A stretch of DNA of 64,000 bases. It comes from Limnomonas spitsbergensis. Taxonomy: Eukaryota > Chlorophyta > Chlorophyceae > Chlamydomonadales. The translations under genes were made by a program, and so were the position numbers. The notes beneath the pieces are model-generated. The model was not told the origin of the DNA and did no database searches. It saw nothing but the letters and a program-made list of their open reading frames with translations. Shown here piece after piece: positions 10,111 through 60,200 of this stretch (positions are counted from its first letter, which is position 1; each line of letters starts with the position of its first letter). The stretch spans positions 4,833,001 to 4,897,000 of the forward strand of contig JAYJMM010000009.1 in assembly GCA_037349105.1 (NCBI GenBank), in the 5' to 3' direction.

Positions 10111-12990
10111 CTGTTTTTGCTCTTGTCCGCAATGGTCCGTTTGAGCACAACCCGCCTCTTTTTCTGCTCCGGAGTCAACTTTGTCCCGGAGCCAGCACTT
10201 TCCCCTGGCTGTACAGCATGAAAGTTGTTTCACGCTTAAGTGCATTCAGGGGGTGCATTGCAAGCAGCATTCACATTCATCTGCTCCGGAGTCAACTGGG
10301 TCCTGGAGCCAGCACTTTCCCCCGGCAGCACAACATGAAGGTGGTGGCGTGCTTTAGTGCTTTGCAAGCAGCATTCACATTCAGCTGTTTCGCAATCATT
10401 TCCGTCTTGGAGCCAGCATCCCCCCGGCTGTACAACAGACAGGTTCTTATTTCAGGTTTGATTGAATTACAAGCAGCCTTCACACTATTATGATCCGGAG
10501 TTAACTTGGTTCTGGAGCCAGAGCTCTCTCCAGGCTGCAGGAAGAGGTTAAGGGAGAGACAAGAAAGGTATACAAGGGGGGGGAGGGGGGGCAAGAGGCA
10601 TGAGTAGAGGGGATACCACACACACACACACACTCCAGCATTGACTTGGTCCCGAAGCGAGCTCTCTCTCTCTCCAGGTCAAGTAGTCAGTGGCATGCAG
10701 CTTGTTGCGGGTCCCAGGTAGTGGCAAGGACCATGCAGCTGGATTCCAGAAATTGCAATCTCTCAAAGCTATACAGCAAGAGGTATGCAAGCCGGTGTGG
10801 GCTCCTGAACCCTTCGTTATCGGGAACCAAATGTGCTCAGTACGGAGCCATTTGCTCAGTCCGGCTGCCTTTACTAACCATCGCTTCCCAGCGGTGAACT
10901 GCTATTTTGCATGGGAGGGTGCTCTAGCTAAAACTCAGCTGCATCACTGCCTATGGCCGGAGAGCCAGGTTAAGCAGGACGTAATGCTTGGACCACTGGC
11001 CACAGGCCGATCAGGGTTTGGTCCCCATCAGCCTGGTGGGGGGATAGGGGTTTAGGTTTAGCCCAGGGGCCTACCAAACACAGGGGTCTAAACAAACACT
11101 GAAACAAAGACAGGGACACGTCCTCCTCGCGCAGGCAAAGATCAAGAGCCGGTTCCCTTTTTTACCCCTCACTCACACACCTGCACCCTCACAGCTTCAT
11201 ACACCCCTCATAAGCTACCGCCCCAAAACTTGACCCTCACACCTACCATCACTCCACACTACTTGGTGACGCTCCCCCCCCCACACACACACACACGCTT
11301 GCACCCTCACAGCCTCATACGTCACTCACTCACTCCCAAGTTACTGCCACCGAGCTTGCCACTCTCACCCGCCAGCGCCCCACACGACTTAATAATGCCC
11401 CCTCCCCCCACACACACGCACTCACACACCTGCACCCTCACTGCCTCATATGCCACCCCAAAGTTGCCGCCCCCAAGCTTGTCCCTCAGGGCGAAGTCGG
11501 TGGCTCCGAAGTTGTTGGTCCTCTGGAACAGCTGCCCTGCAACGTAGTAATCCAGGAGCCCGGCCACGGGGCTTGGCCGTGTGAGAAACAGGTAGTAAAG
11601 CACCTGCGAATGCCAAAACAAAACAGTACCTTCAAGAATCAGTACTATGATGATCGATCATACGACACTGGGCTTGTCTGTGTGAGCAGGAGGTCACGCA
11701 GTGCTTTTAGGGGGCCCAAAATAAAAATGGAATTGGCCGCATGAGCTACGGGTAGGAGTAGCGCCTGCCAAGGCGAAATAAAAAGAAATAGATGACGGAC
11801 AAAGAAACAAAAAGTAGTAGGCCACTAGACTGGGCCGCCTGGGCATGAGACAATGCTATGGCTGCTTGGTCCAAAATTTATACCGGCACACCAGAACGAT
11901 TTATAAAAAATTGTGTGCATCATACGCCACTGAGCTTGGCCGCATACGGTTGGCAGGAGGTATTTCAGCACCTGCAAGGATACAGAAATAAGAAATCGCT
12001 ACGGGGCTTTGCCGTGAGAGCTGGCCACAAATTAGAACATGGCCACATGGACAATCATGGCTCCATGGACAATCATGGCCACATGGACAATCATGGCCGC
12101 ATGGACAATCATGGCCACATGGGGAATCATGGCCGCATGGACAAAAATGGCCACATGGGGAATCATGGCCGCATGGAGGTATAGATGCGCTGACGCTGCA
12201 CCAGCGTCGACATGATATCTGTGCTGTTGTCTGAACTCACGCTCAGGCGTGCCAGGCCAGGAAGTGTGGGTGTCAGGCTGATCAGCGACAAAAAATCTCC
12301 AGCCAGCACGCTGAACGCTACGACCAGCGGCTCGGGAGCAAAACCTGTCATTGCATGCACAATGCTCTGAATGCTGGCGCCAGAGCTTAGAGCGAAGTCA
12401 GACACATCAGGGCCGCCATATCCGGCAGCGGCAGCGACGGCGGCGGCAGCAGCGGCTGCTACTGTGGCTGCCCCCGCTCCAGCCCCCGTTACGAGCCCCA
12501 AAGCTGCCGCTCCAGCAGAGATTGAGGGGGTCATGGCGGCAGAGGCTGAGGACGCGATGGCATCTGAGGCCTGTGTGAGGATATCGGGCAGAGCGCCCCC
12601 AGCGCAGCAGGGGAGTGGGGCACGTGAACTGCTTTGTCTGCGCTGCGGCCTGTGGACGCTGAAGCCGCTGCCGCTGGTGCTGGTGCTGGTGCTGGCGGCT
12701 GAGGGGTACATGCGGGGGCGGGGAGGGCAGGCTAGAGGCTGGGTGTGCTCTCCCGCTCCTGCTGCTGCTCCCGCCCAACCTAAGGCCGCATGGGGCGGAC
12801 AGGGCGCAGGCCCTGTGCTGGTTCTGGAGCCAGGTGATGCAGCCGGGCCTGCAGGGACTGGGGAGCGGCCCCAGGGGCGGATCTGGCAGCCTGGGTTGAG
12901 GTTAGGCAAGGATTGCAAGCAGGCGCATCGGATGTCACTTCTGGGAGGGAGGCTGCGAGGGGGGCTGATCAGGGCTGATTTTTGCTGCAT
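10111..12990 (-). CDS. STN7/STN8-type thylakoid protein kinase, 5' exons (STN8/STL1-like)
   Basis: Three phase-compatible exons: 12990-12241 (250 codons), 11603-11442 (54 codons) and 10208-10111 (32 codons plus 2 bases). Exon 1 starts with a Ser/Arg/Pro-rich, acid-poor N-terminus that looks like a chloroplast transit peptide, then an Ala-rich stretch, then a hydrophobic segment (about residues 221-239). Exon 2 carries the juxtamembrane motif LLDYYV and the glycine loop KLGGGNFGVAYEA (residues 292-304). Exon 3 carries VVLKR with the likely ATP-binding lysine (about residue 327). The order hydrophobic segment, RPSPVAGLLDYY, glycine loop, VVLK matches the plant STN8/STN7 and algal STL1/STT7 family, which phosphorylate photosystem II or antenna proteins at the thylakoid. 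The lumenal CxxxxC of STN7/STT7 is not seen, which favours STN8/STL1. The HRD and DFG exons are missing: they must lie left of the window, perhaps beyond the minisatellite. The exon 2/3 donor could instead be 12 bases later (11430). Confidence 0.8.
10284..10680 (-). repeat. Decoy acceptor array upstream of kinase exon 3
   Basis: Read on the minus strand, the start of exon 3 (GGAAAGTGCTGGCTCCGGGA, ending in ACTCCGGAGCAG) recurs upstream in the intron as four diverging copies, at about 10284-10345, 10400-10440, 10493-10545 and 10630-10680. Each keeps a CTGGCTCC-like core, and several keep the preceding polypyrimidine/AG. See the findings on exon-border duplication. Confidence 0.85.
11165..11400 (-). 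repeat. Decoy donor array downstream of kinase exon 2
   Basis: Two decayed copies of the end of exon 2 (TATGAGGCAGTGAGGGTGCA on the minus strand) sit downstream at about 11165-11255 and 11280-11395. Both keep the GTGAGG donor. The flanking CA-rich and CACTCACACAC tracts are duplicated with them. Confidence 0.85.
11640..12022 (-). repeat. Decoy acceptor array upstream of kinase exon 2
   Basis: Four or five degraded copies of the exon 2 start region (plus-strand GGGGCTTGGCCGTGTGAG followed by an AG-rich stretch and CACCTGC) at about 11663, 11731, 11826, 11926 and 11999. The 11926 copy is the best preserved and still carries the acceptor mirror CACCTGCAA. Confidence 0.75.
12036..12178. repeat. 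18-bp tandem repeat in kinase intron 1
   Basis: About eight units of ATGGCCACATGGACAATC with changes. The open plus-strand frame through it (HMDNHG repeats) is a product of the 18-base period and not a gene. Confidence 0.9.
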
Positions 12991-25984: not shown

Positions 25985-26402
25985 CTCAAGAGTCATGATC
26001 CTGCCATGAGCAGGTGCGGTTTGTTGACAGAATGGTGTTGTACTGCCCTGTTCTGTGCGTTCCCCTCCTAGGGTTCAGTTCAGGGTCTTAGGTTTGGTCT
26101 GAGCTTTCTGGTTGCTAAATTCCTTGGTATGATTGCAGCCTGCCTTTTTGGTGTGAATACCCGTGTCTGCTAACACTATTATGACAACAAATCCTACCTT
26201 GCCCCCTGGGCCCCCCCCATTCCAACATTAAGTCAAGTGTGTAGCACAAGGACCGCCCCCTTGTCCTCACGATCCTGTCATAAGAAGCTGCTTGCAGTCC
26301 ACTTTATGCATAAATTATCATATCTAGCTACATCCTCCCCAGCCAACTCCCTTTAAGGCACACTCAGCCTCCTTTCACTCACGATCCTGTCATGAGCAGC
26401 TG
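25985..26402 (-). repeat. Decoy donor copies downstream of Asterix exon 2
   Basis: The plus-strand mirror of the exon 2 donor (CTCACGATCCTGTCATGAGC) recurs at about 26378-26401 (perfect, with GTGAGTG donor), 26267-26292 (one base changed) and 25990-26012 (degraded). The flanking CCCCAGCCAACTCCC and the CCATTCCAACATTAAGTC segments are duplicated too, so the unit is larger than the exon end. Confidence 0.85.
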
Positions 26403-26507
26403 CTATCATGACAACAAATCCTACTTTGCCCCCTGAGACCCCCCATTCCAACATTAAGTCTCCCCAGCCAACTCCCTTCAACACACACTCAGCCTCCTTT
26501 CACTCAC

Positions 26508-27485
26508 GATCCTGTCATGAGCAGCTGCTTGTAGTCCATGGTGTCATTCCGCATCGTGATGTAGGAGGAGAAGCACAAGAAGAGGCAGGTCCACACGCAT
26601 GCCTTGATCTGCGTACCACATGTAGAATTGATATCAATGTGCATGCCTTCATTTGGTTTCAGGGTTTAGGGTCAAGGGCCTAGATCCAGAGGCACAGGAT
26701 GAGGCATGTCCAGAAACATGACTTGATCAAAATATTCAATTTAGGTCAAGATGCATGCTTTCATCTGATTTTAGGGTTAAGGGTCAAGGGCTTTGATCCA
26801 GAGGCACAGGAGGAGGCATGTCCTTGCGCATGCAGACAGACAGTGTACAGCAAGGACAGACCACAATGGGCACAGACTATAACAGAGTGCAGCAGACACA
26901 TACAAGAGTAGGCTGCCACACCCTGCCATGTTGCACGGCCTGTAGCATGCACATACCCTAACAGACTGCAACAGAAACAGCCTGCACAACATTCAGCAAC
27001 AGGTTGCTTCAGGCTGCAACTGCAACAGGATGCAACAGGAACAGGGCGTGGAGCTAATTACAGTGGGTGAAGTGCAGAGGGGATGTCGGAATAGGCATGG
27101 TCTTGACCTGATTGGTCGGAGGAAATCCTGGGGCAATGCCATGCACGGTTTCAGTTCTTAATCAGTGTCAGGTGCACGGCCTACAGGGCAAAAGGCAGCC
27201 TCTAGAGCTTGGTGACAGACATGATGCATGGCCAACACGGCAAGATGCACGGCGGTTGGTGCATGGTGCCTGATGCATGACCTCCAGGGCAAGATGCATG
27301 GCGGTTGGTGCATGATGCCTAATGCATGGCCTCACTTTGAGGTACAATCCCGCGATGCCGACAATTGCGGCGAGCAGCAGCATCACATCCGGCTGCTGAT
27401 TGTCCGGGTCATTGCGAGGCGGGCAGTACTCAATTTCATCCTGCGGTCGCCGAGGGTCGCCCGCAGTCGCGATGGCTACCTGCAT
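26508..27485 (-). CDS. Asterix / WDR83OS family protein (PAT complex subunit), partial
   Basis: Exon 1 is 27485-27336 (50 codons); exon 2 is 26608-26508 (33 codons plus 2 bases). The start ATG gives nine residues before the family signature GDPRRP, as expected for Asterix, followed by YCPPRNDPDNQQPDVM and a first membrane helix (LLLAAIVGIAGLYL). Exon 2 begins IKACVWTCLFLCFSSY (second hydrophobic segment) and continues with NDTMDYKQLLMT, matching the DTKQ..M stretch of the family. Asterix is a small ER membrane protein that with CCDC47 forms the PAT chaperone complex for multipass membrane proteins. The last exon (third helix and C-terminus) was not located. The ATG directly follows CTTGCAG, so a 5' UTR intron is possible. 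Confidence 0.88.
27185..27332. repeat. ~52-bp tandem repeat in Asterix intron 1
   Basis: Two to three units around GGTGCATGATGCCTAATGCA and CAAGATGCATGGCGGTTG begin just after the exon 1 donor. Confidence 0.7.
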
Positions 27486-28789: not shown

Positions 28790-31700
28790 ATGTTACTGGC
28801 CAGAACTCATGCAGTGTCCCTCGCGGGGACAAATCGCCGCTCGTGCGCTCGGACCAACCTTCGGTCCGGCTCTGTCATCAGCAAACCGTCCAGGCGATGT
28901 GATTCCATCGTACCTCGTGCGGTCTCGCAGCTGCCCAACCCCCTTCTCCAGTGAGTGGTCGTGAAGCCTCAGCCAAGACTACTGGGTGCTGGGTGGGTGG
29001 CTGTGTGGATGGGCACAGGTATCCGTCGTACCAACATCGAACGCATCCTGCCCAGCACTCATCAGGGTTTGCAGGCTGATATGCCATGCACCTGAATCCT
29101 GGAAGAAGCATATCGGGTGGCTGAAGTGGCCACACATACTGACAAACCACAGCCAAATAAGTCGAGGTCCGATGGTTAAAGCCACTCCAGGTCCACACCC
29201 CTAGTTCCACTGCACCTCCTCTCTGATGCTGACTCCTAATGTACAGGGTTACTAGGGTTGGGCGGCCAGCCTCACATTGTTAAGTCCCAGGAAAAGCAGG
29301 CGCACCCGGCTGTTTTCCTGAGTCTCAGGTTTTGAAGGGTTGGGTGACCAGCCTCACATCGTGTAAATTCCCAGCACAAGGTTCACCCCCCTCCGGTCTA
29401 ACCAGACTTAAGGCTGAAGGCTGACTCACAGTACTGTCACAACTCACAGTACTGTTGCTCCCCTGAACCGAAGCTGATGGTTGACTGCACCTTTCTCTTC
29501 TCTCGGTCCCGCTGGACCTCCAACTTCCGCACAGAGATGGCCACTTATCATGCAAGCGAAGGAAAGGCCCACACCTCTAGGGTTCCTCCTTTAAGTTCCC
29601 CTTTTTTACTCTCCTCGCTTGTCTTTGTCTCGTCGGACCTCCTAGTACGCTGTGGCGGCCACTTGTCCAGTCCTCGTCAAAGGAAGGTTCATACCGCCCA
29701 CTCTTGTTGCTGCCCAGGGACCCACCTGGCCTTCAGCTGACACGCAGTCATAGCCACTAGTATATAGATTCCCACCAAAAGAAAGGGCCGCCGCCCTCAT
29801 TCACATCTTCTGCCTCCATCCCTAACTTTTTTGCCTGGACCTGACAAAGTGTGACGCTGGTTGCTGTGCCCTTGGAAACCTGAGGCGCAAACACACAAAA
29901 ACACGGCGCAGGTGCGGCTGTGGCCCTCGTCGACAGGCGAGATTATCTGTACCGCAGTCCATAATTCTTCCCAGGGTACTACCAAGCCTTTAGCTGATGT
30001 GTGGGGAAGGAGGATTTTTTTTAGTAAACGGATCATACTGCCCCTGCCCCTTGCTTCCCCTCAGGGTCCTGCCCCGCCTCAAGCTGATGTGTGGGGTCGG
30101 CTGAGTAAGGACGATTGAATGGAAGAATCATACTGCTTCTCTCCCTTGCTGCCCCTTAGGGTCCTACCCACCCCTAAGCTGATGTGTGGGGTCGGATAAC
30201 AAACAATGGACGAATGAAAGGATCACACTGCCCCTCTCCCTTGATGTTTTTCGCAGAGTCCCGCTCGACCTGACGCTGATGCGTGGAGATGGCCAGCAAA
30301 CGCTGGTCAAAGACATGGTGGAGGGAAAAGTCGTCTTGGCCCTCCTGCGCCACCTTGGATGACCCGTGAGTGGGGTTGGATGAGTTGCAGCCCAGGACGT
30401 GTTGGGGGGCTAGGTGGTACTGGCCCTCCTGCACCACCTTGGCAGACCCGTGAGTGGAGTTGGATGAGTTGCAGCCCAGGACCTGTAGGAGGGCTAGGTT
30501 GTACTGGCCCTCCTGCGCCACCTTGGATGACCCGTGAGTGGTGCTAGCCTCAAGTTTGCAAGCTCAAACAGGTGAAACGAGGAAGTTGTATGCTGCCTTC
30601 TTCCTTTTGCCTTCTTTTAAGCCATCTGGAATGACCTGTGCGCAATGCGTCTAGCTGTCTCTAGCAACTCCTGTGTACTCCAGCAGTTATAGTAAACAAG
30701 GGAGCTGTGAAGTTGTATGTGTCTCCTTGTGCTTCCTCTTACCCACCTGCTTAATCAGTTGGATTGAACTAGGCGTTGCAAGGCTGCATGCAGCTGTGTA
30801 ACTCCTAGTCAATCTCCTACTGCCCCCCTATCCCTCCTGAACCACCTGGGATGACCCACGTGCAAATCAACGACTCCTTCTCGCCCACCTGCTTATGTAG
30901 TTGGATTGAAGGCGGTGGTTCACACTTCCAGGGATGCCTGGTGATGACTGATGACTGATCCAGTGCTTGCGATGAATCATGTATAATCAAGAACCTGCAG
31001 CCCGTATTTGCAGCATGCGTAACAGTGTTTATTAGAGTGGGTACAGGACATGTCTTGTTGGGCGCCCTGCGGCTCACCCGGGCCGATTCTCGCCAAACGA
31101 GGACCGGTGGCCCAAGCAGCATGGCTTGGGCCAACCAGGGGCTTGTGGCTGGGGGCCACAGTGTAGCTGAACTGTAGCTGAACTGTACCTGATAGTGGTC
31201 TACCACTCCCTTAGAAACAACACTGATGAGCGCTCATGCAGGTGCTACACATGTTCTCCTTATCCCTCATGATAAGTGTGTGGTATATGGGTGCGGTAGA
31301 TGGTCTGAAAGTTTAAAAACCCCTGAGGCGTTCAGTTAACAGACTTTAGGACGTACTTCAGCCCTGGTATATCAGCGTATTGCTTTTATCCTGACCACAC
31401 GACGTGAGTGCGCGGAGTAGGCGGCTGCTGCCGACTCCTTCCAATGTTTTTTATTTCCTTCCTCGACGCCTCGCCCTTTTCCTCCTCTGTGCTAGGACCG
31501 GCCTCCAACCCGGCTTCCTAGTCCCTACCCCTGCCACCCCTTATAATTGCTTGCTGCAGCTGTACTGAGATTAAGCTGTGAGCCTCTTATTCCTGATCCC
31601 TCTCCCCCTCTACTTTCTCCCTGTTGCAGCTGTTTTGGGAGCAAGCTGCCAGCCCAGTTGAAGCCTTGTGTTCCTGACCCCTCATGATCTATCCCCCTCT

Positions 31701-38920: not shown

Positions 38921-41900
38921 ATGGGTTCTTCACTTAGCCGCGGCGTGCCTTCAATGCCCAGGGCTAGCCCCTCCTGGAACTCCGCTTCCGTCCTCACGCA
39001 TGGCGATACCCATGCAGCCTGGCGCTTTAGCGCCCGCACCGGGCCATCTTCCTCGCTCCTACCTGCTGCCATCAGGTTACACCATGATTCTGGTGGAAAA
39101 AATACAAGACCGGGACTTCCCTGCATGTCCCCCCATGCCTCCATGCCGGAAGCCCATGCAGGCCGCGGCGCCGCCATGCGAGGTCTGCCATGCACAACGC
39201 CGGATGTCTCCATGCGATCCAGCCATAGCCACAGCACGGGTTCTGAGTTTGCTGGTGACGAGGGTCCCGCGCGGATGTCACTCCGGACAGTCTCTTCATC
39301 TCCGTATGCTCCAAATGCGCCCGATGCCGACGTGTACATCTTCTGGGACCTGGACAACAAACTCCCGGGATGGGCCCACCCAATCCTTGTACTCAACAGG
39401 CTTAAGTGCGTACAGGGTTTGGTTCTTTGGGGCATAAGTGGTGTGGAATTTAGGGGACTGGACTACAAGCACCCGTGATAGGTATAGCCAATCACAATGC
39501 TTAAAAATTGCGATTAGGGTCCCGGGGATTCAAGATTTGGGGCTCTGGGGTTGGGGTTTTAGAGGACACTGACACTGACAACAAGCAACCACGCTGGTCT
39601 TAATCGTGTTGTTTAAAAGGCTCAAGTGAGTTGAGGGGTAAGGGGCTTGAGGGGTTTCGGCTTTTGGGGGAGTTTGGTGTTCGTTTGTTTTAAAACATCA
39701 GTAACAAGCAACCAGGATGGGTTCGTCTGATCGTAGCACTCAGCATGCTTCAGTGAGTCAGGGTTTCAGGGCATGCTCTAGAATGTTCAGTGCATAGGGC
39801 CATGCTTCAGTGGGTCAGGGTTTCAGGGCATGCTCTAGTATGTTTCAGTGCGTAGGGGCATGCTTCAGTGAGTCAGGGTTTGGGGGCATGCTATTTCACG
39901 TGTAGGGCTTTAGGGGGCATGCCCATGTGTGTCTGGGGCCTGCTGAAGTGCGTTGAAGGTGAAGGGGCATGTCCTAGTACGTTTAGGGTTTAGGGTCAGG
40001 CTCAAGGACGTTTAAGGTAAAGGGTTAAAGGTTTAGGGTCGGGCTCAAGGGCGTTTAGGCGTGTGTGGGTGCAGGACTGTGTTCAGGGTGTTTGGGTGTG
40101 AGCAACTTAGGCAGGCTTGTTCCAGGGTTTGTGGTTGTGGGGGGGTGTCTCGTTCTCTGGACTATGGGTTTTGGAGGTGCAAGGGTGCTGGATCTGATTG
40201 AAGGGGGCTGAGAAAGCTCGGCAGGCTCATGTGCCTTATGGGTTTTGGGGGCTTGTCAGGTTGGTGCTTTCAGCGCTGTAGTGTGTTTGGGGAGTGCTGG
40301 AGGGGCTGGGCTGGGTGGAGGGGCTGGGCTGGGTGGAGAGGGTATCCTGTGCCGGTGCTTCTTTTTTCGGCTACGAGTCCTCTACTTTGGGAGGCCGCCC
40401 AGGGGCCGCCACAGGCGGAATTGAGCCCAAACCTGGACTAGGCTATGACTGGTGGCCAAAGGAGCATGGCTGGCGACACATGAGGCCTTCGACCAGAGGC
40501 CGGAGTGTAGCTGACTTGTAGCTGAGTCTCGATAAAAGAAACACTTCGGTATCTTGTGTTTGAGTTGTGTTTCAGGTGTGATTGAGGATGCTCGGGTCAG
40601 CCCAAGTAGGGTTTTTGTTTTTTCGTGCAGACTTTGGCCACCTACAGCTGGTGGAATACCCTGGGTTTGGGTAGTGCGGGTGAGGTACTGGGCCTAGGGT
40701 CAAGGGTATGCTGGGTTCGGTTTTATGTGTGTGTTTGAGAATTCGGGCGTGCAGGTCCACCCTGGCGATATCAAATGCAGCTGGTGGGACATTCTCTGTT
40801 CATACTGTTCACCTGTCTTTCAAAACAGGCTTTGGGGGTTGCCTAGGTGGCTTTAAAAGAACCGGATGGAATTAAAATCGAGCCTTTGGGGACCCCCCCT
40901 GCCCTGCCCCCTTCGTGGGGGAGCAGGGGGGGAAGCCCCTCGCAGCCCGCCACAAGCGCCGCCTATTCTCCTCTTGTTTCCACTGGGAATCAATTGCTGG
41001 GGGGCAGGGATCAGACAGGGTGAAGGGTGAAGGGTGAAGGGTGAAGGGGCATCTGCCTGGCCGTGCCCAATGTTTCTGTTCAATGCTTTTCATGGTTGTT
41101 TTCTCAACACTGAAATCCCGCAGCACCCTGCGGCGGCCGTGGAAACTCCCCAACATTCAGATTTGTTTTGTGTCTCACACCACTTTTCGCCATAGCTCTG
41201 TTCCAATCTGTTGGATTGGAAGGCTTTTGTTTTTGGCGTATGTACATCGTTAATCCTGAACCCCAAATATTGACCCTAACCCATGATCTTTGCACCCTGA
41301 ACCCCTAAACCCTGCAGGGAAGCCGTTTCCGAGTTTGTACATCTGAAGGATGTTTACAGTTACGGCAACCGCAACTCTTGACCCTACACCATGAGCCCTG
41401 TACCCTGCACCCTTGAACCCTGCAGGGAAGCCGATTCCGAGTTTGGATGCCCGACGACTGTATATGGGTACGGCAGCCGCAAAACACTGGACAAGGTGCC
41501 TGTACCCTGAACCCCTAACTCTGCAGGAATGCCGTTTTCGATTTTAGGCGTCTGAAGGCTGTGTAAGGGTACGGCAACCGCAACACTTCGGACCAAGTGC
41601 CTGAATCTGTAAATCGTAAATCCTAAGCCCCAACTCTTGACCCTGCACCTTAATCCCTGTACCCTGTACCCTGTACCCTGCACCTTAATCCCTGTACCCT
41701 GTACCCTGCAGGGAAGCTGTGTCTGTGTTTGGACGTCTGAAGGATGTGTATGGTTATGGCAATCACAACACGCTGGACCATATTCCTGAAAGCGTAGTGG
41801 AGGAGCACAGGATGCTGATTGAAGGTGTGTATCAGCCTGCCAGAATGGTGTCATGGTATTACTTGGAGGGGGGGAGGGAGGGGAAGCAGTTTATGTTCAT

Positions 41901-44900
41901 GTTGTATCGGAGGAGCAGAGGCAGCAGCTAGAGGGTGCGTTGCAGACTGCAAGGCTGGCATCATGGTGTCACATGGGGGGGGGGGGGGGGGCTGTTTTCT
42001 GTTATTTGCTGGACAAACATGGGCTGCAGCTAGGTCGTGCTTGCCAGGATGACGTCATGGTATTACTAAGGGGGGGAGGGGGGGCTGTTTTGTTTAATTG
42101 TTGATACAAAGTTGACGCAACCACCCACAGCCTTTTGCAAAAGGGCCGGCAGAGCGAACCAGGAGGAAACCACAAACGGAAACCGAAACAGGCAGTTCTG
42201 TTAAGTATTGGAGGGACTTTGGCTGCAGCTGCAGCGTGCTTGCCAGGATGATATTTTGGCGCCACTTTGGGCCTGGGGGATGGGGGATGGGGGATGGGGG
42301 ATGGGGGATGGGGGATGCACTTTCTTCACTGTTTCTTTCTACTCCTTTTCTGCTGATTTCCCACTGTTTTTTAATGACACTCTTTCCTAGGGGGGGGGCG
42401 GGCAAAAAAAAACACAATGCAATTGGTTAATGACCCTCTTCTGATAACCAGCTCATCCATGCGACCCTCTGGACGGCTGGACCAGGCCCCCATGGCCGTG
42501 GGCAATGACGTAGATGAAATGTAGCTGAAAAGTGCTTAAATCAGTAGTAGACATCAGTAGAGATCTCTTGGGTCGCTTCACTTGCTGATGCACTCCCTGC
42601 CCTCTATCTAGGGATTGTGATTTGCGGCAGAGGTAGCCTCAGCAAGAGCTTCAGTTATAGCCTGGACTCTTGCCAGCAGTAGCAGCCTTGGTAGCAACAG
42701 AGGGCGTCAGCATGGGTGACTTGTGTTGCTGCATCCGGATGTGTGATTGGCGGCAGAAAGAGCCTCAGCAGGAGTAGCCTCAGCAGGAGTAGCCTCAGCA
42801 GGAGGAGCCTCAGCAGGAGTAGCCTCAGCAGGAATAGCCTCAGCAGGAGTAGCCTGAGCAGGAGTAGCCTCAGCAGGAATAGCCTCGGCAGGAATAGCCT
42901 CGGCAGGAATAGCCTCAGCAGGAGTAGCCTCAGCAGGAGTAGCCTCAGCAGGAGTAGCCTCAGCAGGACTAGCCTCCGCAGGAATAGCCTCAGCAGGAGT
43001 AGCCTGAGCAGGAGTAGCCTCAGCAGGAATAGCCTCGGCAGGAATAGCCTCAGCAGGAGTAGCCTCAGCAGGAGTAGCCTCAGCAGGAGTAGCCTCAGCA
43101 GGAGTAGCCTCAGCAGGAGTAGCCTCAGCAGGAGTAGCCTCAGCAGGAATAGCCTCAGCAGGAATAGCCTCAGCAGGAGTAGCCTCAGCTGGAGTAGCCT
43201 CAGCAGGAGTAGCCTCAGCAGGAGTAGCCTCAGCAGGAGTAGCCTCAGCAGGAGTAGCCTCAGCAGGAGTAGCCTCAGCAGGAGCTTCAGTGCTTGTCTT
43301 GATTCTTGACAGCAACAGCAGCCTAGGTAGAAACACCAAGTGTGAGGGCCACAAGTGTGAGAGCCACAAGTGTGGCAGCCACAAGTGTAGCCGGAGAAGA
43401 TACTGCGAATAAGTACATATATATATGAACCCTAAACCATATAATTGTGTGCTGCCACTCTTATGAGCTTTTCCATGTCTGGCCGTTCAGCCCCTCTCTT
43501 GCGCACTTTCCCCTGCTGAATTCCCCTTTGAGCTGACACTGAGATGCCTTATGAGTAAAAGGCTGTCATGCAAAGCTCTTGTGCTCAGGGTATATTGCAC
43601 CGTCTTGTACAAATGCCTCTGAATGATTGCTCAGTTATTCTGTCAGTTCCCTCCTGCCCTTCAAACCGAATTGCTGGCATTTATCTTTAAATCCCTCCTG
43701 CCCTTCAGATCCTCCCACCTTCCAGCAGTCCAACCTGATTGAACACAGGTGGACTCCTTCTTTTTCAGTTTTTTGTCCAATTTGTTTCCTCCCGGTTTGA
43801 TATGCCTGGCCCTTTCAAAAACGACATTTGTGTGGGTTTGTGTTATCGCTGTAACAACAAACCTGGATTTCCTTGTTCGCAGAAGCTGAGGGGCCATACA
43901 GGTGTGAAATGTGTGGACGCGGGTACCCCACTCTCAAGGAAATGCAGAAGCACTTCAAACAGCTACACGAGCGCCAATTCAAAAAGGAGGCCAGTCACAA
44001 GTGGGTTTGTATTGTTTAATTACTTCGATAGGAACAAAAAGTAGGACTGTGACATGTGGGTTTTATTGTAAATCTCAAAAAGAACAAAAAGGCAAACTGC
44101 TTATCCTGAGATCAAAGACAAGCTTCTGCATACCTTGCAGATGCATCAGGCAACCTTCTTTTAAGACAAATAACAGTGTAAGTGATAGCTTCAAGTCAGC
44201 TTCATGTCAGCTTCACTTCAGCTCTTCTTCAGCTTCACTTAAGCTATCCTTCAGCTCCACCTCAGCTCCTGGTCAGCTTTATATCAGCTTCATATCAGCT
44301 TCACTTCAGCTCTTCTTCAGCTTCACTTCAGCTCCACCTCAGCTCCGCATCCGCTTCACTTCAGCTTCTCTTCAGCTCCACCTCAGCTTCTCACCAGCTT
44401 TTTTATGTTTATGTCCAAATGTACCATCTTCATCAGCCTGCCAAAGGATCTTCGCGACCTTGTCCCAATTTATGCTGGTTCGTTACTTTTATCAACCTGA
44501 TCTTTCAAGTTTTAAAGATGCAAACTTGGTTCATGCTTTTTAAACCACTTTGTGGTCCATTCCCTCCTACTGGCAGGCCGAAGAAGTTCAAAAAGTCCAA
44601 CCCGGAGAGGAAGGATAAATACTACAATGCTCGAAGGGCGGCTGGGATGGGACGTCCATTGTTTTCTGAAGTGAATTTCAAGAAGATTTTGACCGACGCG
44701 GGCGTGAAGGTATGCCCTACAAGTGCATCCCTTTCTCTGGGCTTTGAATTCACGATTTCTGTGACTACTACCTTTTGAGTGACCCCAGGGTGTGGCATGA
44801 GCTGGTGTCAAGGTTTAGTGTTAATGCTGCAGCATCTGCAACCGTCCATTTTATGTTAGTTAAGCTAAAATTCAGCTACACCACAGCCTACGGCTGTGGG

Positions 44901-47097
44901 GGCCTGGTGCAGTCAGCCCTGCTGCCTGGCCCAACAGCCGTAGGCTGGTCAAGGCTTGGTCTCAGTTTAAGGTTGAGGGTTGAGGATGGTGGCTGCCCGC
45001 CCAGTGGTCAAGGTTTGGTCCCAGTTGGCCCAGTGGTGGCCGCCCGGCGGCCTGTCAAAGGTGCTCTGGTGTGCACTCGATGAATCACTGGCAACCACCG
45101 CACAGCATTCGAAAAAGCATTTATGGTGGTGCTGCAGAGAAGATTGGCTAAAGCTTGGATATGAACAGGGTGCAAACTCTACCGTCGCATGTTGTGCATC
45201 TCTTGCCCGCTACCTGCAATTGTGAGCCGAGAGGCGATGTGCGGCTTAATTCATGGCTGCTCGGACAATCAAGGGATGAGTTTTGACCTCTGTTTATGTG
45301 GAGGCGCTGAACCTACAAATCAGCTGCATTCGGCTGGGGGGCCCTCTCAAGAAATGAGTTTTGACCTATGTTAATGTTGGGGCGCTTTACATACAATTCA
45401 GATGCATCTTGGCCTTGAGTTAGGGTGTCCTGGCGAAGCAAGACCTTTCCTGCTGGCCGCAAATTTAGAATGGTGCATGCCGGATGTACCCTGCTGAATG
45501 CTCGGCCGCGCGGGGCTGGTAGAGATAGAGCAATCTCAAACCCAGCTACCATGCACAGCCAGGACCAAGGTGCAGCCAGGTCACCCTCCTATGTGAGAGG
45601 GGCAGGAACTTGGGACCCGGTGATCTAGGCAGGAGGAGGGAGAGGATCCCTCAAAATTTCGGTATGGATCGGTGCTGTGCAATTGCGCCACAATTCAGAA
45701 ATCGTGTTAGTAATTACGGTCCTTTACTGGTAATAGTCGCCTAATTTGCCTTCAAATTACGGTGACTGAAATCCAGCTACGTAATTCAACTACCGTAAGA
45801 ACCGTAATTGGCTACCGTAAGGACCGTAAGGACGATAATCAGCTACCGTAAGGCCCCTTATTGGCACAGCACTGGTGTGAATGCCACCAGGTCCTGCTGA
45901 TCAAAAGTGTGAATGGGTTCCCAGCGTGACCGTGAACCCCTTAAACAAAAACATACGTAATTTGTGCTTGTGCATTCCAACCCGACATGCGCAGGTGATG
46001 TTTGTGAGAAGCCAGCCGGAAGCTGCCGGCCTGACTTCTTGTGCACACTGACATGCTTGCGCTCCCTGACCTGTTCACGTGTGTTATGAGGGTCCAGGGA
46101 TTAAAATTAAGCCCTTCACCATATAAACAGGGTTCAGGGATTGAAATGATCCCCTGAATCATGCCAGAAATTACTTCATTTCTGCTTGTGCATCTCGACC
46201 TGCCCTGCGCAGGTCACCTGTGTAACCAACAAGCCGGATGCTGCAGACTCTCTTCTAAAACGTGATGCCCGTCGACTGATCAAGCAGCTGAGGCAAACAG
46301 AAGGACAGGATGGCACTGCTCCTGGTGCCGCTCCTGGGAATGCTCCTGGTACTGCTGATAGAGCCGCTAGTTCTGCCACAAGCTCTGCTGGTGCCGTTGC
46401 TGCTACCACTCCCAGTATCGCTTTTAGTGCTGCTGCTGGGTCTGTTGTGGGTACTTATTTCTTGACCTCTCCTGGGCCTGAGACTGGTACCGCTGCTGGT
46501 GCCGCTGCGGGTACCGTTGCTGGTACTGAGGCTGGTACCGCTGGTGGTGCCTCTGCTCGTACCGCTGCTGGTGCCCCTGCTAGTACCGCTGCTGGTACCG
46601 CTGCTGGTACCGCTGCTGGTACTGAGGCTAGTTCCGCTGCTGGTACCGCTGCTGGTACCGCTGCTGGTGCCCCCACCTCCAGCGCTGATGATGAGACACC
46701 TGGTATCTTCGGATCCGCCGGCCTTGAATGGAGTGCGGCTCAGGTGCTGCAACAGCCGCAACAGATGCAACAGCCGCAACAGCTGGTGCACAAAGTGTTT
46801 GTAATAGTCTCTGATGATCGCGGCTTCGATCAGTTGCTGAGGCTTTACCGGGCGGAGAGGCCTGAGCCGTGGACCACGGTCTCGGTGTGTAACAGGGGCA
46901 GGGTGCCTTTCCCTAACGCGGACTTTGAGCTGGACTGGGGCCAAGTTCAGGCCGGCAGGGCGCAGCGGCCGCGGTGCCTGTTGCCTGCGTCCGAAGCGCA
47001 GAAAGCGGCGTTGGCAGCAGCGGCACGCAAGGCCTGGTTCCGGCGACTGTGCATTCACCGTCCCGTCCCCACCATCCGCCGGCAGCGCTTGTTCTAG
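38921..47097 (+). CDS. Plant-type NYN domain nuclease with internal C2H2 zinc finger
   Basis: Five exons in phase: 38921-39405, 41712-41824, 43883-44000, 44577-44709, 46213-47097 (TAG), 577 residues. The start MGSSLSRG fits an N-myristoylation pattern but could begin a targeting peptide. VYIFWDLDNK (acidic D143, D145) opens the NYN fold; exon 2 gives VYGYGN and HIPESVVEE; exon 3 is one C2H2 finger (C207, C210, H223, H228) ending KHFKQLHERQ; exon 4 is Lys-rich with FKKILTDAGV; exon 5 has KPDAADSLLKRDA and, after a long insert, VFVIVSDDRGFDQLL (S483-D484-D485). This order is that of land-plant proteins annotated as endonucleases with a C2H2 finger (limkain-b1/PIN-like), expected to be metal-dependent RNases. 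The ~165-residue Gly/Thr/Ala/Pro insert between AAD and SDD is unusual. Confidence 0.85.
39406..40090 (+). repeat. Decoy donor array downstream of NYN exon 1
   Basis: The exon 1 end CAACAGGCTTAAGTGCGTACAG is followed by roughly ten decayed versions: AGGCTCAAGTGAGTTGAGGG (about 39621), ATGCTTCAGTGAGTCAGGGT (about 39747 and 39859), ATGCTTCAGTGGGTCAGGGT (about 39800), TTCAGTGCGTAGG (about 39844) and later GGCTCAAGGACGTTTAAGG forms (about 39998 and 40040). Confidence 0.85.
40345..40548. mobile_element. TIR element family A, divergent copy
   Basis: Imperfect inverted ends (GGTGCTTCTTTTTTCGG and GATAAAAGAAACACTTC). The inside has GGCCGCC-rich sequence, GACTGGTGGCC, and GTAGCTGACTTGTAGCTGAG near the right end as in copies 1 and 2. 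A relative lies inverted at 35282-35475. Confidence 0.6.
41290..41700 (+). repeat. Three decayed copies of NYN exon 2 upstream of the real exon
   Basis: Each begins with an ACCCTGCAG-like acceptor and then a broken copy of the exon start: about 41310-41400 (GGGAAGCCGTTTCCGAGTTT), 41421-41506 (GGGAAGCCGATTCCGAGTTT) and 41517-41610 (GAATGCCGTTTTCGATTTT). They continue with CTGAAGG and TACGGCAACCGCAA, which corresponds to VYGYGNHN. All contain frameshifts or stops; only the 41712 copy is open. Confidence 0.92.
41825..42265 (+). repeat. Decoy donor copies downstream of NYN exon 2
   Basis: Three degraded copies of the exon 2 end (GAGGAGCACAGGATGCTGAT and GAAGGTGTGT) at about 41908, 42012 and 42212, each followed by CTGC.AG.ATGG.GTCATGGT-like intron sequence and a poly-G run. 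Confidence 0.82.
42756..43285. repeat. 15-bp tandem repeat (CAGCAGGAGTAGCCT) in NYN intron 2
   Basis: About 35 units with single-base variants (AATAG, CGGCAG, GAGCAG). The period of 15 keeps all frames without stops over long distances, so the long frames here (AEATP on minus, SRSSL on plus) are not taken as genes. Confidence 0.95.
44180..44400. repeat. CAGCTTCACTTCAGCTCC pyrimidine-rich repeat
   Basis: About fifteen 12-15-base units in NYN intron 3. It supplies a long polypyrimidine stretch well upstream of the exon 4 acceptor. Confidence 0.85.
45660..45870. repeat. TACCGTAA-rich short repeat cluster
   Basis: Several copies of CTACCGTAA and ACCGTAATT within NYN intron 4. The motif resembles the 20-bp repeat at 61 kb and the ends of Stowaway-like family B. 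Confidence 0.55.
45960..46080 (+). repeat. Decoy acceptor upstream of NYN exon 5
   Basis: TGCTTGTGCATTCCAACCCG then CATGCGCAGGTGATGTTTGTG mimics the real TGCTTGTGCATCTCGACCTG, CCTGCGCAGGTCACCTGTG. The following GAAGCCAGCCGGAAGCTGCC matches the exon's AAGCCGGATGCTGC. Confidence 0.8.
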
Positions 47098-48779: not shown

Positions 48780-49006
48780 CTACTTCTTGGCGATCCCGTT
48801 GTATCCATAGCGGTCCTCCACCACCGCTTGGTAATAGGCGCCCCTGCCGGCCTCACCGATTGGCTTGCCATGGCCATTCGAGTAAGACTCGTTGTAGCCT
48901 TTGGTGTTGGACGCAACGGCCTCAAGTAAGCTGGGGGATTGTCAATGGGTTGGCCGTTCCCGTTCTGGAACTGCCCATTGCTGGCGGTCCAGTTCTTACC
49001 CAGAAA
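48780..49006 (-). pseudogene. C-terminal coding fragment, unknown family, one-base frameshift
   Basis: Minus strand reads GKNWTASNGQFQNGNGQPID then PPAYLR; shifting one base (near 48930) continues AVASNTKGYNESYSNGHGKP and ends DRYGYNGIAKK with TAG at 48780. The two halves share an internal repeat (N.S.SNG.G.PI, then AY..AV), so the break is probably a single-base deletion in a once continuous frame, or a sequencing error, or an undetected intron. I do not recognise the family. No upstream exons were found. Confidence 0.4.
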
Positions 49007-54272: not shown

Positions 54273-57200
54273 ATGCTGCTTCTTCACAGGTTGGTTAATT
54301 CGTGAAGATAACACTTCTGAAGACCTTCATACCTGTTATACTGTATGCTGATTTCAGGGTGCACGGATGTAGAAGGGTGATATATACAAATACACAAATC
54401 TGAAGTGTGACGTTCACACACAACAGCCCTCAACCTAGGACATACTGGTTACAGGACTCCCAGAAGAGTACGTGTGGTGGTAATATGACAGGTATACTGT
54501 AAGCCTACAGACTGAAATATAGGGTTCATACTCTTTTAAAAGTAGGTGCAAGTCCTCGCAATGGTATGTCTGCAGGATATTGTAATGCTGCGGTACTTTG
54601 TACTGCCAAAAGCTTTGAGACCCCAGCACCGTAAACATGACCAAGTTCTAGGCCATGGATGAGAGGACTTGCCATTGAGGATTTAATACCATTGTTTAAA
54701 TGTGTGCTCAATTTGTGCTGTTTCAAGACAAGGCTTTACCCTGAACCCTAACTGACTTCCAAACCTGCTCCTTAACCTTAACCTGCTCCTTAACCTTATC
54801 CTGCTCCTAAACCCGCTTCTAAACCTGAACCTGCTCCTAAACCTGCTCATAAACCTAAACCTGCTCCTAAACCTGCTCCTAAACCTGAACCTGCTATTAA
54901 ACCCGCTTCTAAACCTGCTCCTACACCTGAACCTGCTCCTAAACCTGAACCTGCTCCTAAACCTGAACCTGCTCCTAAACCTTAACCTGCTCCTAAACCT
55001 GAACCTGCTCCTAAACCTGAACCTGCTCCTAAACCTGAACCTGCTCCCACACCTGAACCTGCTCCTAAACCTGAACCTGCTCCTAAACATGAACTTAAAC
55101 CTAAACCTGCTCCTAAACCTGAACCTGAACCTGCTCCTAAACCTGAACCTGCTCCCACACCTGAACCTGCTCCTAAACCTGAACCTGCTCCTAAACCTGA
55201 ACCTGCTCCTACACCTGAACCTGCTCCTAAACCTGAACCTGCTCCTACACCTGAACCTGCTCCTAAACCTGAACCTGCTCTGAAACCTGAACCTGCTCCT
55301 AAACCTGAACTTAAACCTAAACCTGCTCCTAAACCTGCTCCTAAACCTGAACCTGCTCCTACACCTGAACCTGCTCCTAAACCTGAACCTGCTCCTAAGC
55401 CCGCTCCTTAACCTGAACCTGCTCCTAAATCTGCCTTTAAACCTGAACCTGCTCCTAAACCTAAACCTGCTCCAGAGAGACTTCTGTACCTGCTCCTCCA
55501 CCTGTTATACCCTCATCCATCACCCTAAACCCTATCCGTTCAGTTTATGGCTGGGACAAGAGCGTTACAAGACCTGTGGAAGTCTGGGGGCAGCCAGGAG
55601 CTGCGGGAGGCTACCGTCCTGCTCCACAGGTGGGTTGCTGGGATGCAATCCGATGCTGTGCAATCTCCTATTGGAAACGAGAGGAGATTGGGTTTATGCT
55701 TTTGTTTTTTTTCGTGTCAGCCAAAGGAGTTTCGGTCAGCCACCGTCCTGCTACACTGGTATGATGCTGGGATGCAATCCCTTCTGGCATCCAGAGAGCA
55801 TTGTGCGTTTTTTTATTTTTTTGGTAGCCAGGAATTGCGGGAGGCTACCGTCCTGCTACACAGGTACCAGAGGGGCTTGCGCTTCTGATAGTTTTCGAGC
55901 TGCAGTCAGCCACTGTACTGCTACACAGGGACACAGAGGGGATTGCCCCTGATATTTTATTCTGTTGTTTCGTGTCAGCCAGGAGCTGCGGTTTGCCACC
56001 ATCCTGCCGCACAGCTGTGCTGCTGGGATGTCATCTCAAGCGCTCAATCCCTTATGGTTTCCAAAGGGGATTACGCGTTGTTTGTTTTGTTCTTTCGTGG
56101 TAGCCAGGAGCTGCGGTCAGCTGTAGTCCTGCTACACAGGTGGGTTGCTGGGATGCAATTTCGTCTCTGCTGTAACCCCGCACCAGCATTCCACACTAAT
56201 TCCACTCATTTTGCTCATTCTAGCTTAGCTTCAGCCATGCGACCCAGCCCTGCCTTGGCCCGCTCTAGCCCTGCCCTATGCCTGCTACACATGTGTGCTG
56301 CTGGCTCACCTGCCCCCCTCTTTCCCCAACTCTACACTGAAACTCTCTCCCTCGCCACACTCTAGACGCACTCTGGCTCTGCTCCTCCACCCCGCCCTAG
56401 CCCTGCCCTAGGTCTGCTACGCATGTGTGCTGCTGGCATACCTGCCCCCCAACCCTAAACTGAAAATCTCTCCCTTGTCCCACTCTAGATGCCCTCCAGG
56501 CCATAATACCCTTTACCCCAAACCCTTTTTCCCCTCCCATGTATAAGGAGGCTGGCTGGGCCATCACACCCTAAGCCCTAATCCTATTTAAGATGATGGC
56601 AAAAGCCCTAATACCCTTCACCCCAAGCCCCTTATACTTCTCCCACGTATTAGGAGGCTGGCTGAGGCCATACTCAGCGACTCCAGCGAGGGGGCTGACA
56701 TCTATTCGGCAGCGTTTCTGCACTTGGATCCAGAAAGCAAAGCGATCGCTGTTGAAGAGCTGCGGATGTATGCCAGGGCTGTGGTTTCAGGGGTGAGTAG
56801 GGGTCAGGGGTCGGAGGTGCAAAGGGGTGGAGGGCGGGGGAAGGGTGTCATTCGGTGCTGAGGGCAGGGGTCTTAGTTGGGAAGGGGGGAGGGCGGGGGT
56901 AAGGGTGTCATTCGGTGCTGAGGGCAGGGGTCTGAGGTGGGAAGGGGGGAGGGCGGGGGGAAGGGTGTCGTTCGGTGCTGAGGGCAGGGGTCTGAGGTGG
57001 TAAGGGGGGGAGGGCGGGGGGAAGGGTGTCGTTCGGTGCTGAGGGCAGGGGTCTGAGGTGGGAAGGGGGGAGGGCGGGGGGAAGGGTGTCATTCGGTGCT
57101 GAGGGCAGGGGTCTGAGGTGGTAAGGGGGGGAGGGCGGGGGGAAGGGTGTCGTTCGGTGCTGAGGGCAGGGGTCTGAGGTGGGAAGGGGGGAGGCCGGGG

Positions 57201-60200
57201 GGAAGGGTGTCATTCGGTGCTGAGGGCAGGGGTCTGAGGTGGTAAGGGGGGGAGGGCGGGGGGAAGGGTGTCGTTCGGTGCTGAGGCCACATGTGCTCCG
57301 TTACTAGATCCTGATTTCAGGAGTGAGTAGGGTTCTGGGTTTTGGGGTCCTAAGGTGGGTAGGGTGGAAGGTCTGGCATTTTTTGTTGCGGCTCTTTTTC
57401 CTCGTCGTGCTTGCTTGCTATGCGCCCCTCGGGGCTTGAGGTAGAGTTATAGGGTATAATTCGGTGCTGAGGCCACATGCAATCCATTACCAGAGCCCGG
57501 TATCAGGGGTCAATAGGGGGGCAGGGGTCAGTAGGGGGGCAGGGGGCAGGGGTGGAGAGGAGGGTAGGGCGGGGTGGAGGGTGTAATCCGGTGCTGAGGC
57601 CACATCTGCTCCGTTACCAGATCCTGGTTTCAGGGGTGAGTAGGGGCAGGGGTCTGGGGTGCAAAGGAAGGAGGGTGGAAGGGTAGGTGTTTTCCCCGTA
57701 GCCATCTGTCCTTGTTGCGCTTGCTTGCTAGTAGCAAGTTGCTACGTGCCCCTCGGGGCTTGAGGTAGAGTTAATTGGTAGAATTCAGGGCTGAGGCCAC
57801 ATGTGCTCCGTTACCAGAGCCCGGTATCAGGGGTGAGTAGGGGCAGGGGTGAGTAGGGGGACAGGGGTCTGGGGTGGGAAGGGGGATAGGGCGGAGTAGA
57901 GGTGTCATTCAATGCTGAGGCCACATGTGCTCCGTTACCAGAGCCCGGTTTCACCCAACATTGTGGCGCCAGACTCAGCCTAGACTTGATTGCCCCCCTC
58001 CCCCCCTTCCCTTCATGCCCCCCCTGGAGGGGAGGAAGGGGTCCCAAGAAAGATATATGTCTGACATTTGTTGGCCGTGTGCGCGCTTGTTGTTCGTCTG
58101 CCCTTCCCGTTTCCTGCTCACTTTTTTGCCAGAGGCCCCTCGGGCGGCCGAAGGTCGGGGGGGCGAAGCCTTCAGAGTCATCCCGTATCCGTCAGTCAGC
58201 CGTCTGTCTGGCATTTTGTTGGCCATGTGCGCGCTTGTTGTTCGTCTACCCTTCCCGTTTCCTGCTCCCTTTCTTCCAGCTGCCGACGAGGGTCGCAAAC
58301 GCACCCGGGCTGTTTTGTTTCGGTGTAAGCGCCGCCTCAGGTTTTCAATGGTTAGGCGGCCAGCCACACACTTTGTGACGTCCAAGCAGAAACATACGCT
58401 TGTCTCCCCTCCTTCAAAAAGAATGCCAGGATGCTGTAGCCAAAGCTGCCTCTCTCATCCTTTCCCTTTCTCCCTTGGTCTTCTGCCCTTCCTGTTCCCT
58501 GCTCGCTGTTTCTTAGCTAAGCTCATATGCCGTCATGCGCACCTGGGCTGCTTGTTTGTGTCAGCGCCTCAGGTTTTCAAGGGTTGGGCGGCCAGCTCCA
58601 CACTTTCTTAAGTCCAAGCAAAAGCAAATGCGCCCCCCCCCCCCCGAAGCAAGTATATTGTAATAATGTGTTTGCTCCTCATCTCTTCCCTCCAGGACTT
58701 ATCAGCCTACCATGGCGGCGCGGCGGCAGCAGGTGCAGACGGCGACGTGTCACCCGCTGAAGATGCTGACACCACCCTGCCCTGTTGGCCTGAGCTGACT
58801 GAGCTGCACATGGCACCAGTAATGAACCCAGTGTACATGGAGCAGGCCAGGACGCGTCAGCCGCCACCCGGGTGGGCCTTTTATCCAGACGCACCGACCT
58901 CTATGGAGGAGGGCCGCGCAGAGGCGGAAGCTGTGGCGGGAATGGGGCACGAGGAACATGGCCAGGGGAGCGGGGCGGCTGCTCCCGGTGCAGTTGATGC
59001 GGTATCGAGGGGCTGTGAAGCACCTGGTCGGTTGGGCCTGCCTGGAGCTGGGCCTGGGCGTGCGTTTGGAGCCGGCAATTTCAGTCTGGGGGCACGGAAG
59101 AGAAAGGTGGATGACGCCTCCCCCTCGGGTGTGCGAACCAAGGAAAAAGCCCGGAAGCGAGCAGCTGACCCTCTTGGTGCGGCGGGACAAATGGGGAGGC
59201 AGCTGGGCAGTGGTGGCAGTGGCGGCGCGGGAGGCAGTGGCAGTTGCGCTGAGGCAGGTGGCAGTGACAGCTTGCCCGGCAGTGGTGCAAGGCTGGGTGG
59301 TCCTCAGGTGGATGGCCCAAGCTGTGTGTTAGATCAGCAGGCTGTGGCGGCGACGTTGGACCTGTCAGCCCCTTGGCTGCCACCCTCAGCAGGTGCTCAG
59401 CAGCCTGCTCCAGTACCCGCTCAGGAGACAGATCCTGGAGCCAATCAGCAGCCACCCCCAGCAGGCCCTCAAAAGCCTGCTCCAGTAGCCGCTCAGCAGC
59501 CGCCCCCAGCGGCCGCTCAGCAGCAAGCACCAGCAGCCCCTCAGCCGGTCGCTCCAGCGGTTTCTCCGCAGGCCCTCGCTTGGTTACAACGCTCGGCGAA
59601 CACGCAACAATCCGCCCAAGGGGCCACTAGCCCTCCAGCCCCTCCAGAAGGCGCTCTTCGCTTCATGGCTTGGCTGGGGGCTCAGCACTTAAGCTACCCA
59701 GCCGGCCAGAAACAAGCCATGGCAACGCCAGGCAGCGCGGCCGCTCAGCACTTCAGTGCCTGTCAGGCTGCCCAGTTTGCGAGGATAGCCGCTCAGCAGT
59801 TGGCTCAGGCAGCCGCTGGCGCATCGGATCTTATGCCCCACTCTTTAGCAGGCACTGGCGTACCGGATCCAATGCCTTCCTCTCTAGGCCACGAGCAGAA
59901 GCAGCTGGAAGCCACTCGGCTAGATATTAAAAGTACGAGGGGGAAGTGGATGGCAGCTCAGCACTCGCTTCAGGCCGTGCATGAGGCGCGTCAGGATGCC
60001 GAACTGGCTCTCAAAACTGACCAGGAGGAGTTGGACACTGCCAAGCTAGCACTCGAGGAGCAGTGGGTGGCAGCTGAGCTAGCTACCAAGGCTGGGAAGG
60101 AGCTGCGGGAAGCTGCTCAGAAGCTGGCCTTGGAGGCTGAGGGGAAGAAGCGAGAGGCCATTCAGCTTGCAATTAGGACTGAGCAGGAGGAAGGGGCAGC

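What the first reader, a model, noticed from the sequence alone, without database searches (positions are those of the whole stretch)
10284..57960. Exon-intron borders are tandemly duplicated into introns, making arrays of decoy splice sites
At no fewer than ten borders in five genes, the exon edge plus its splice site is copied 1-10 times into the adjacent intron: donors downstream, acceptors upstream, always same orientation, with graded decay. Examples: kinase exons 2 and 3, Asterix exon 2, SelU exons 2-5, NYN exons 1, 2 and 5, and exons 4 and 5 of the 51105 gene. Ordinary random tandem duplication should not centre so regularly on exon ends. It suggests a splice-border-linked duplication process that drives intron growth, or selection tolerating duplications only when they recreate a splice site. 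The compact TFIIA gamma gene has none.
Basis: partly seen in the sequence, partly recalled or inferred. Interest (0 to 1): 0.93.

Follow-up and report, generated by a model that had tools for sequence, protein, structure and literature searches.

The report
Tandem-copied exon edges in algal introns
In this snow-alga genome, short stretches of DNA inside introns are often repeated head to tail, and where such a repeat overlaps the end of an exon it leaves a row of apparently dead copies of the exon edge and its splice site; in the other genes examined these repeats are spread along introns about evenly, so no special splice-linked copying process is needed to explain most of them.

Summary
Of 32 borders called by hand in six genes, 18 have at least one same-strand copy in the adjacent intron. 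TFIIA gamma has none (0 of 4). The genome is almost certainly Limnomonas spitsbergensis.

Local duplication is level along introns (0.143 at the border, 0.089-0.136 deeper) and falls inside exons to 0.034. Repeat arrays span borders in 12 of 46 cases; uniform placement predicts 10.1 (P=0.29). In the window it is 10 of 19 against 2.6.

The copies look neutral: mismatches between copies are nearly level over codon positions (0.22/0.24/0.29), while exon against copy shows 0.15/0.15/0.27. Exon-anchored copies thus stay recognisable about 1.5 times longer.

Best explanation: ordinary intronic tandem duplication; selection removes duplications inside exons and tolerates those overlapping a border, because the copy joined to the exon keeps working. 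A true border hot spot is not excluded: a SelU paralog carries different arrays at the same borders.

The parts
11170..11488 (-). Kinase exon 2 donor array: exon end (11430) and donor copied twice downstream
   Evidence: K2 D, offset 131, 59 nt exonic; copies
10162..10539 (-). Kinase intron 2 acceptor-side array, ending at the exon 3 acceptor (10163); two copies of the acceptor region, AG intact in one
   Evidence: (K2, classed interior because exonic reach is under 8 nt)
26569..26833 (-). Asterix exon 2 acceptor array
   Evidence: A1 A, offset 112, 40 nt exonic; Asterix identified
25993..26538 (-). Asterix exon 2 donor array; nearest copy 59/62 identical with intact GT
29965..30311 (+). SelU exon 2 acceptor array, offset 90
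30312..30541 (+). SelU exon 2 donor array (exon ends 30365, just after the in-frame TGA), period 84; the footprint runs on to 30857
31552..32059 (+). SelU exon 3 acceptor array (exon starts 32017), smallest offset 81, four copies over the cut-off
32131..32653 (+). SelU exon 3 donor array (exon ends 32183), units 55 and about 70, four copies over the cut-off
33287..33632 (+). SelU exon 4 donor array (exon ends 33305), offset 77; GT lost in both copies over the cut-off
39356..39937 (+). NYN exon 1 donor array (one weak copy that includes the donor, plus intronic repeats)
41241..41790 (+). NYN exon 2 acceptor array: three decoy acceptors with intact AG; the array reaches 79 nt into the exon
41794..42251 (+). 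NYN exon 2 donor array, offset 110
43980..44069 (+). NYN exon 3 donor, one short copy (not over the cut-off)
45954..46244 (+). NYN exon 5 acceptor, one copy 218 bp upstream
55582..56166 (+). 51105-gene exon 4 donor array, four copies
56498..56671 (+). 51105-gene exon 5 acceptor copy, offset 105
56782..57953 (+). 51105-gene exon 5 donor array merged with a 60-bp minisatellite
38139..38468 (-). TFIIA gamma: two short introns (87 and 162 bp) around exon 2, no copies

Best explanation
The arrays are the part of a widespread intronic tandem-duplication process that happens to overlap exon ends. Units of roughly 35-150 bp duplicate head to tail (replication slippage or unequal exchange, inferred). 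Inside an exon such an event spoils the coding sequence and is removed. Inside an intron, or across a border, it is tolerated, because the copy still joined to the exon supplies the working splice site and the others become intron. Repeated rounds lengthen the intron and leave rows of unused splice sites that drift neutrally. They stand out at borders partly because the exon copy is held still by selection, so the pair stays recognisable about 1.5 times longer than two intronic copies. Shown: presence, orientation, spread along introns, absence inside the exons examined, drift of copies without clear coding constraint. Inferred: the molecular step, the lengthening as its result, and the disuse of the decoys.
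For: 25 genes, 105 introns: the chance that a 24-nt probe has a same-strand copy in its intron is 0.143 (0-24 nt from the border), 0.136, 0.117, 0.125, 0.093, 0.127, 0.089 (600-1000 nt), and 0.098, 0.060, 0.034 going into the exon (54 introns of 250 bp or more); reverse-strand rate 0.0023. Border-spanning arrays 12 of 46 against 10.1 under uniform placement. Exonic reach of the 12 spread over 8-67 nt, not fixed at the border. 0 of 84 Rab exons with an internal duplication, 0 arrays in 37 introns under 150 bp. Copies drift: exon against copy mismatches 107/714, 111/723, 189/708 at codon positions 1, 2, 3; copy against copy 135/609, 150/619, 173/598 (31 borders: window, other genes and SelU paralogs together); 0.232/0.152 at positions 1 and 2 gives the factor 1.5. 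Splice dinucleotide intact in 43 of 54 copies (0.80) against about 0.72 expected if only the copy drifts at 0.15 per site. Introns with arrays: median 797 bp, without: 150 bp.
Against: In the window 10 of 19 arrays span a border against 2.6 expected; with units of 150 or less a persistence factor of 2 still leaves P=0.007 and 3 leaves P=0.045. In the other 25 genes, units of 150 or less give 11 of 40 against 7.1 (P=0.069), and with introns of 500 or more 9 of 34 against 4.8 (P=0.035). A SelU paralog (L003) has arrays at three homologous borders with different units. Splice dinucleotides are intact more often than other dinucleotides of the same alignments (0.796 against 0.644), though those include sites free to drift on both sides. 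Copy against copy mismatches are somewhat higher at third positions (0.289), so a little past constraint is not excluded. Two window stretches outside these genes are nearly free of duplication, so the process is not equally active everywhere.
Confidence: 0.66

Rival explanations
1. Border-linked duplication: something about splice borders (nascent-RNA/DNA hybrid, pausing at splice sites, repeat-prone polypyrimidine and GTGAGTG tracts) makes tandem duplication start there, driving intron growth from both ends.
For: Window excess 9 of 18 against 2.3; in window introns 0.44-0.57 of probes near donors have a copy against 0.19-0.27 in deep intron; a SelU paralog is arrayed at the same borders with different units.
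Against: Level profile and 12 of 46 against 10.1 in 25 other genes; exonic reach varies from 8 to 67 nt; the window was selected for this feature.
Confidence: 0.17
2. Selection keeps the decoys: arrays of splice sites have a function, for example regulated intron retention or protection of the true site.
For: GT or AG intact in 43 of 54 copies.
Against: That is near what drift of the copy alone predicts (about 0.72); exonic parts of copies show nearly level mismatches over codon positions.
Confidence: 0.06
3. The copies are alternative or newly gained exons, or the arrays are how these introns arose (tandem-duplication intron gain, introners).
For: Some arrays reach 70-80 nt into the exon next to an acceptor (NYN exon 2, 79 nt; L003 exon 3, 71 nt).
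Against: Copies drift much as non-coding DNA; in-register likeness of exon end and intron end 0.238, 0 of 105 introns at 60% or more; only 7 intron pairs share sequence, one of them an overlap of the same DNA.
Confidence: 0.06
4. Assembly artefact: arrays made by misassembly of noisy long reads.
For: The assembly is from PacBio continuous long reads with Canu.
Against: Most copies differ by 5-30% from the exon edge and lie at unlike spacings; polishing used long and short reads; paralogs show the same kind of array.
Confidence: 0.03

Closest known systems
Minisatellites and local tandem duplications in introns
   Same: Head-to-tail units of tens of bp, same strand, mosaic decay, copy number often above two; 43 full-unit head-to-tail pairs of 90% or more identity in the fetched loci (pairs, not arrays, and the HSP70 and threonine aldolase loci were partly counted twice)
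   Different: A share of the arrays includes a coding exon end, so the copies carry splice sites and open frame
[quoted passage not shown] passages read)
   Same: Tandem duplication beside splice sites, tolerated because splicing removes the extra DNA
   Different: Here existing introns appear lengthened; exon end does not resemble intron end
Novel intron positions by sliding or tandem duplication in Drosophila (PMC2891723, passages read)
   Same: Duplication of coding sequence at splice motifs
   Different: There the intron position changes; here the coding border is kept and copies pile up in the intron
Direct repeats near splice sites (PMC11782384, abstract read)
   Same: Repeats at intron borders
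   Different: Those are 4-30 bp repeats around the two borders of an intron, read as insertion scars; these are long one-sided arrays

Membership tests
Tandem repeat / minisatellite arrays | Same-strand, head-to-tail units with near-constant period | tested here: met
   one reverse-strand hit in 68 introns
Tandem repeat / minisatellite arrays | Not confined to exon borders | tested here: met
   34 of 46 arrays do not span a border in 25 genes; level profile
   not met in 25 other genes; met in the selected window
Intron gain by tandem duplication | Exon end repeated at the end of the intron in register | tested here: not met
   0 of 105 introns reach 60%
Introner elements | Introns of different genes share near-identical sequence | tested here: not met
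   7 pairs among 105 introns, partial matches of 58-219 bp, one a self-overlap
Tandem or mutually exclusive exons | Copies keep coding constraint | tested here: not met
   copy against copy mismatches nearly level over codon positions, slightly higher at the third
Tandem or mutually exclusive exons | Copies spliced into mRNA | not testable with these tools
   no RNA data

The most novel reading that the evidence does not exclude
Certain exon borders are hot spots where tandem duplication restarts again and again. In the SelU family a paralog on another contig (L003) carries arrays at exon 2 donor, exon 3 acceptor and exon 3 donor, and the window gene has arrays at the same three borders with different units (exon 2 donor 84 bp against about 60; exon 3 acceptor smallest offset 81 against 131), so they most likely formed separately after the genes split. 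If general to a class of genes, intron growth in this lineage is seeded at splice borders.
Probability: 0.2. Interest if true: 0.78.

Novelty: new variant of a known kind. Interest (0 to 1): 0.45.

Why it matters
It gives a countable record of how introns may lengthen: each array keeps the steps as copies, and the exon supplies a fixed reference. It shows a genome where local duplication covers about 30% of intron sequence in 19 genes at Rab loci and where some introns carry intact-looking splice sites that the cell must presumably ignore, a natural test of splice-site choice. It also shows how an eye-catching pattern at borders can come from even-handed duplication plus selection and slower decay beside exons.

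Tried and rejected
Rejected: intron gain by duplication and introners; decoys kept by selection; duplicate coding exons; graded decay. A simple count of border matches was replaced by the array-placement test, since interior duplication is also common. An earlier version of that test with fewer introns (57 of 150 bp or more) gave 9 of 34 arrays spanning a border (10 if one without contact to the edge is counted) against 7.8.

Choices and rows: the placement test takes the smallest offset as unit and the whole footprint as array length, a simplification of mine. Introns with weak flanking exons (score under 14 or under 18 nt) were dropped before counting. First-pass introns of the L038 and L036 antisense genes were replaced by the extended HSP70 and threonine aldolase models. 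Those two genes were extended because their proteins were known and they ran off the locus, but each had already shown one border array, so that step was not blind. One kept intron under 150 bp (L038+ 7023-7080) is probably false, as it overlaps the HSP70 gene. Gene L054 matches its reference weakly (59 of 192) and gives 3 of the 12 border arrays. The 84 Rab exons were not filtered by score. Window genes with one known border were counted apart (5 of 14 against 2.3). The reverse-strand count printed covers only its last intron.

Led nowhere: more families, because the genome search did not complete; protein homologs, because that database is switched off.

Full report
What the genome is. The window is G000:C9:4833001-4897000 of an assembly of 260,226,709 bases in 124 contigs, and contig C41 is 10,736,355 bases long. 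The Limnomonas spitsbergensis paper (PMC11228838) gives 260.248 Mb, 124 contigs, longest contig 10.736 Mb and mean intron length 788 bp (abstract and 12 of 16 passages). The passages shown do not mention copies of exon edges.

The observation. Genes were placed with typed reference proteins: Asterix (E 9e-7) and TFIIA gamma (E 1e-5) clearly, kinase (E 0.28) and SelU (E 0.57) weakly and with the help of motifs; the NYN and 51105 genes by eye from the sequence. SelU exon 2 ends just after an in-frame TGA near the position of a cysteine in human PRXL2A, as expected of a selenoprotein (recalled). For 32 borders a probe of 40 exonic and 40 intronic bases was compared with the adjacent 1.8 kb on the intron side, with the reverse strand as control. 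18 have at least one copy, and TFIIA gamma has none of 4. An earlier count with 32-nt probes pointed the same way.

Is it more than chance. Yes: the reverse-strand rate of the 24-nt statistic is 0.0023 and of the 32-nt one 0.0077 at 22 matches. But local same-strand duplication is common here: it covers 33% of the window from 9000 on, 30% of intron bases in 19 genes at the Rab loci, 8% of their exon bases and 17% of the rest of those loci. Two stretches of the window are nearly free of it (12.5-24 kb, 4.9%; 47-51.5 kb, 1.0%). So the question is whether borders exceed introns.

The independent test. I fetched 20 loci matched by the Ras family search, wrote a spliced protein-to-DNA aligner, and mapped 74 introns in 19 genes; four neighbouring genes (two eL42 genes, an ARF-like gene, an RS31-like gene) and two extended ones (HSP70, threonine aldolase) brought this to 105 introns in 25 genes. 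The Rab genes were taken without regard to repeats; the last two had each shown one border array before they were extended. Probes starting 0-24, 24-60, 60-120, 120-200, 200-350, 350-600 and 600-1000 nt from the border have a copy in the same intron at rates 0.143, 0.136, 0.117, 0.125, 0.093, 0.127 and 0.089, with wide overlapping bootstrap ranges; inside the exon 0.098, 0.060 and 0.034 (54 introns of 250 bp or more). This is the shape expected of even duplication with selection against exon damage. Arrays: 46, of which 12 span a border, 10.1 expected if each array is dropped at random where selection allows it (P=0.29). With units of 150 or less: 11 of 40 against 7.1 (P=0.069); with introns of 500 or more as well: 9 of 34 against 4.8 (P=0.035). 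Borders of introns of 500 or more with a spanning array: 10 of 62, against 10 of 18 in the window.

Why borders look favoured. In exon-copy pairs mismatches are 0.150, 0.154 and 0.267 at codon positions 1, 2, 3; in copy-copy pairs 0.222, 0.242 and 0.289 (31 borders from the window, the other genes and the SelU paralogs together; pairs are not independent). The copies drift at all positions; the exon's extra changes fall on third positions. So at positions 1 and 2 an exon-anchored pair diverges about 1.5 times more slowly, and should stay detectable longer. With that factor the expectation in the other 25 genes (units of 150 or less) becomes 9.4 against 11 seen (P=0.32), but in the window 3.2 against 9 of 18 (P=0.0013). 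The window excess is therefore real as a count, but the window was selected for it and the borders of two genes were set by eye.

Paralogs of SelU. The first search had returned two more SelU genes: L002, 75 kb upstream on the same contig, and L003/L004 on contig C100. L003 has five copies over the cut-off downstream of the exon 2 donor (more by eye, about 60 bp apart), three upstream of the exon 3 acceptor and one downstream of the exon 3 donor. L002 has one copy at the exon 3 donor and none at the exon 2 donor or exon 3 acceptor. In L002 the intron start directly after exon 3 matches the DNA after the last decoy of the window gene (window 32616-32697 to L002 2067-2148, 91%), so the order of array parts differs between the two genes: these arrays turn over. 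Unlike arrays at the same three borders of L003 and the window gene are the best evidence left for hot borders.

Other alternatives. No sign of intron gain by duplication or of introners among the 105 introns. Decoy splice dinucleotides are intact in 43 of 54 copies, close to the 0.72 expected from drift of the copy alone. I found no paper describing this pattern in the searches (no hits); there I read titles and the starts of abstracts, and only open-licence papers are held.

Verdict. Real, striking to the eye, mostly explained by ordinary intronic tandem duplication filtered by selection and by slower decay beside exons. Whether some borders are hot spots needs the full annotation.

Noticed in passing
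window 1-8733: 28-bp satellite, 312 copies, 97% matches, reaching the left edge of the window.
   Followed up: no
window 30257-30365: SelU exon 2 carries an in-frame TGA near its end, next to the exon 3 LCWEQ motif; probable selenocysteine codon. L002 and L003 keep a TGA there too.
   Followed up: partly
L002 1400-2510; L003 1440-3050: Two further SelU genes, one 75 kb upstream on the same contig, with their own border arrays (L002 at one border of the three scored, L003 at all three).
   Followed up: partly
window 58612-61188: 858-aa stop-to-stop open frame with tandem repeats of 84 and 168 bp (multiples of three) encoding a charged, probably coiled-coil stretch.
   Followed up: no
window 12500-24000 and 47000-51500: Stretches almost free of local duplication, unlike the genes around them.
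   Followed up: no
L036/L037, L039/L040, L042/L043, L044/L045, L046/L048, L049/L050: Rab genes come in pairs with like intron positions but different intron lengths; L044/L045 also share an eL42 neighbour, hinting at block duplication.
   Followed up: partly
L005 and L006: Two uninterrupted Ras-family matches with identical scores on different contigs, unlike most other Ras matches here, which come in pieces.
   Followed up: no
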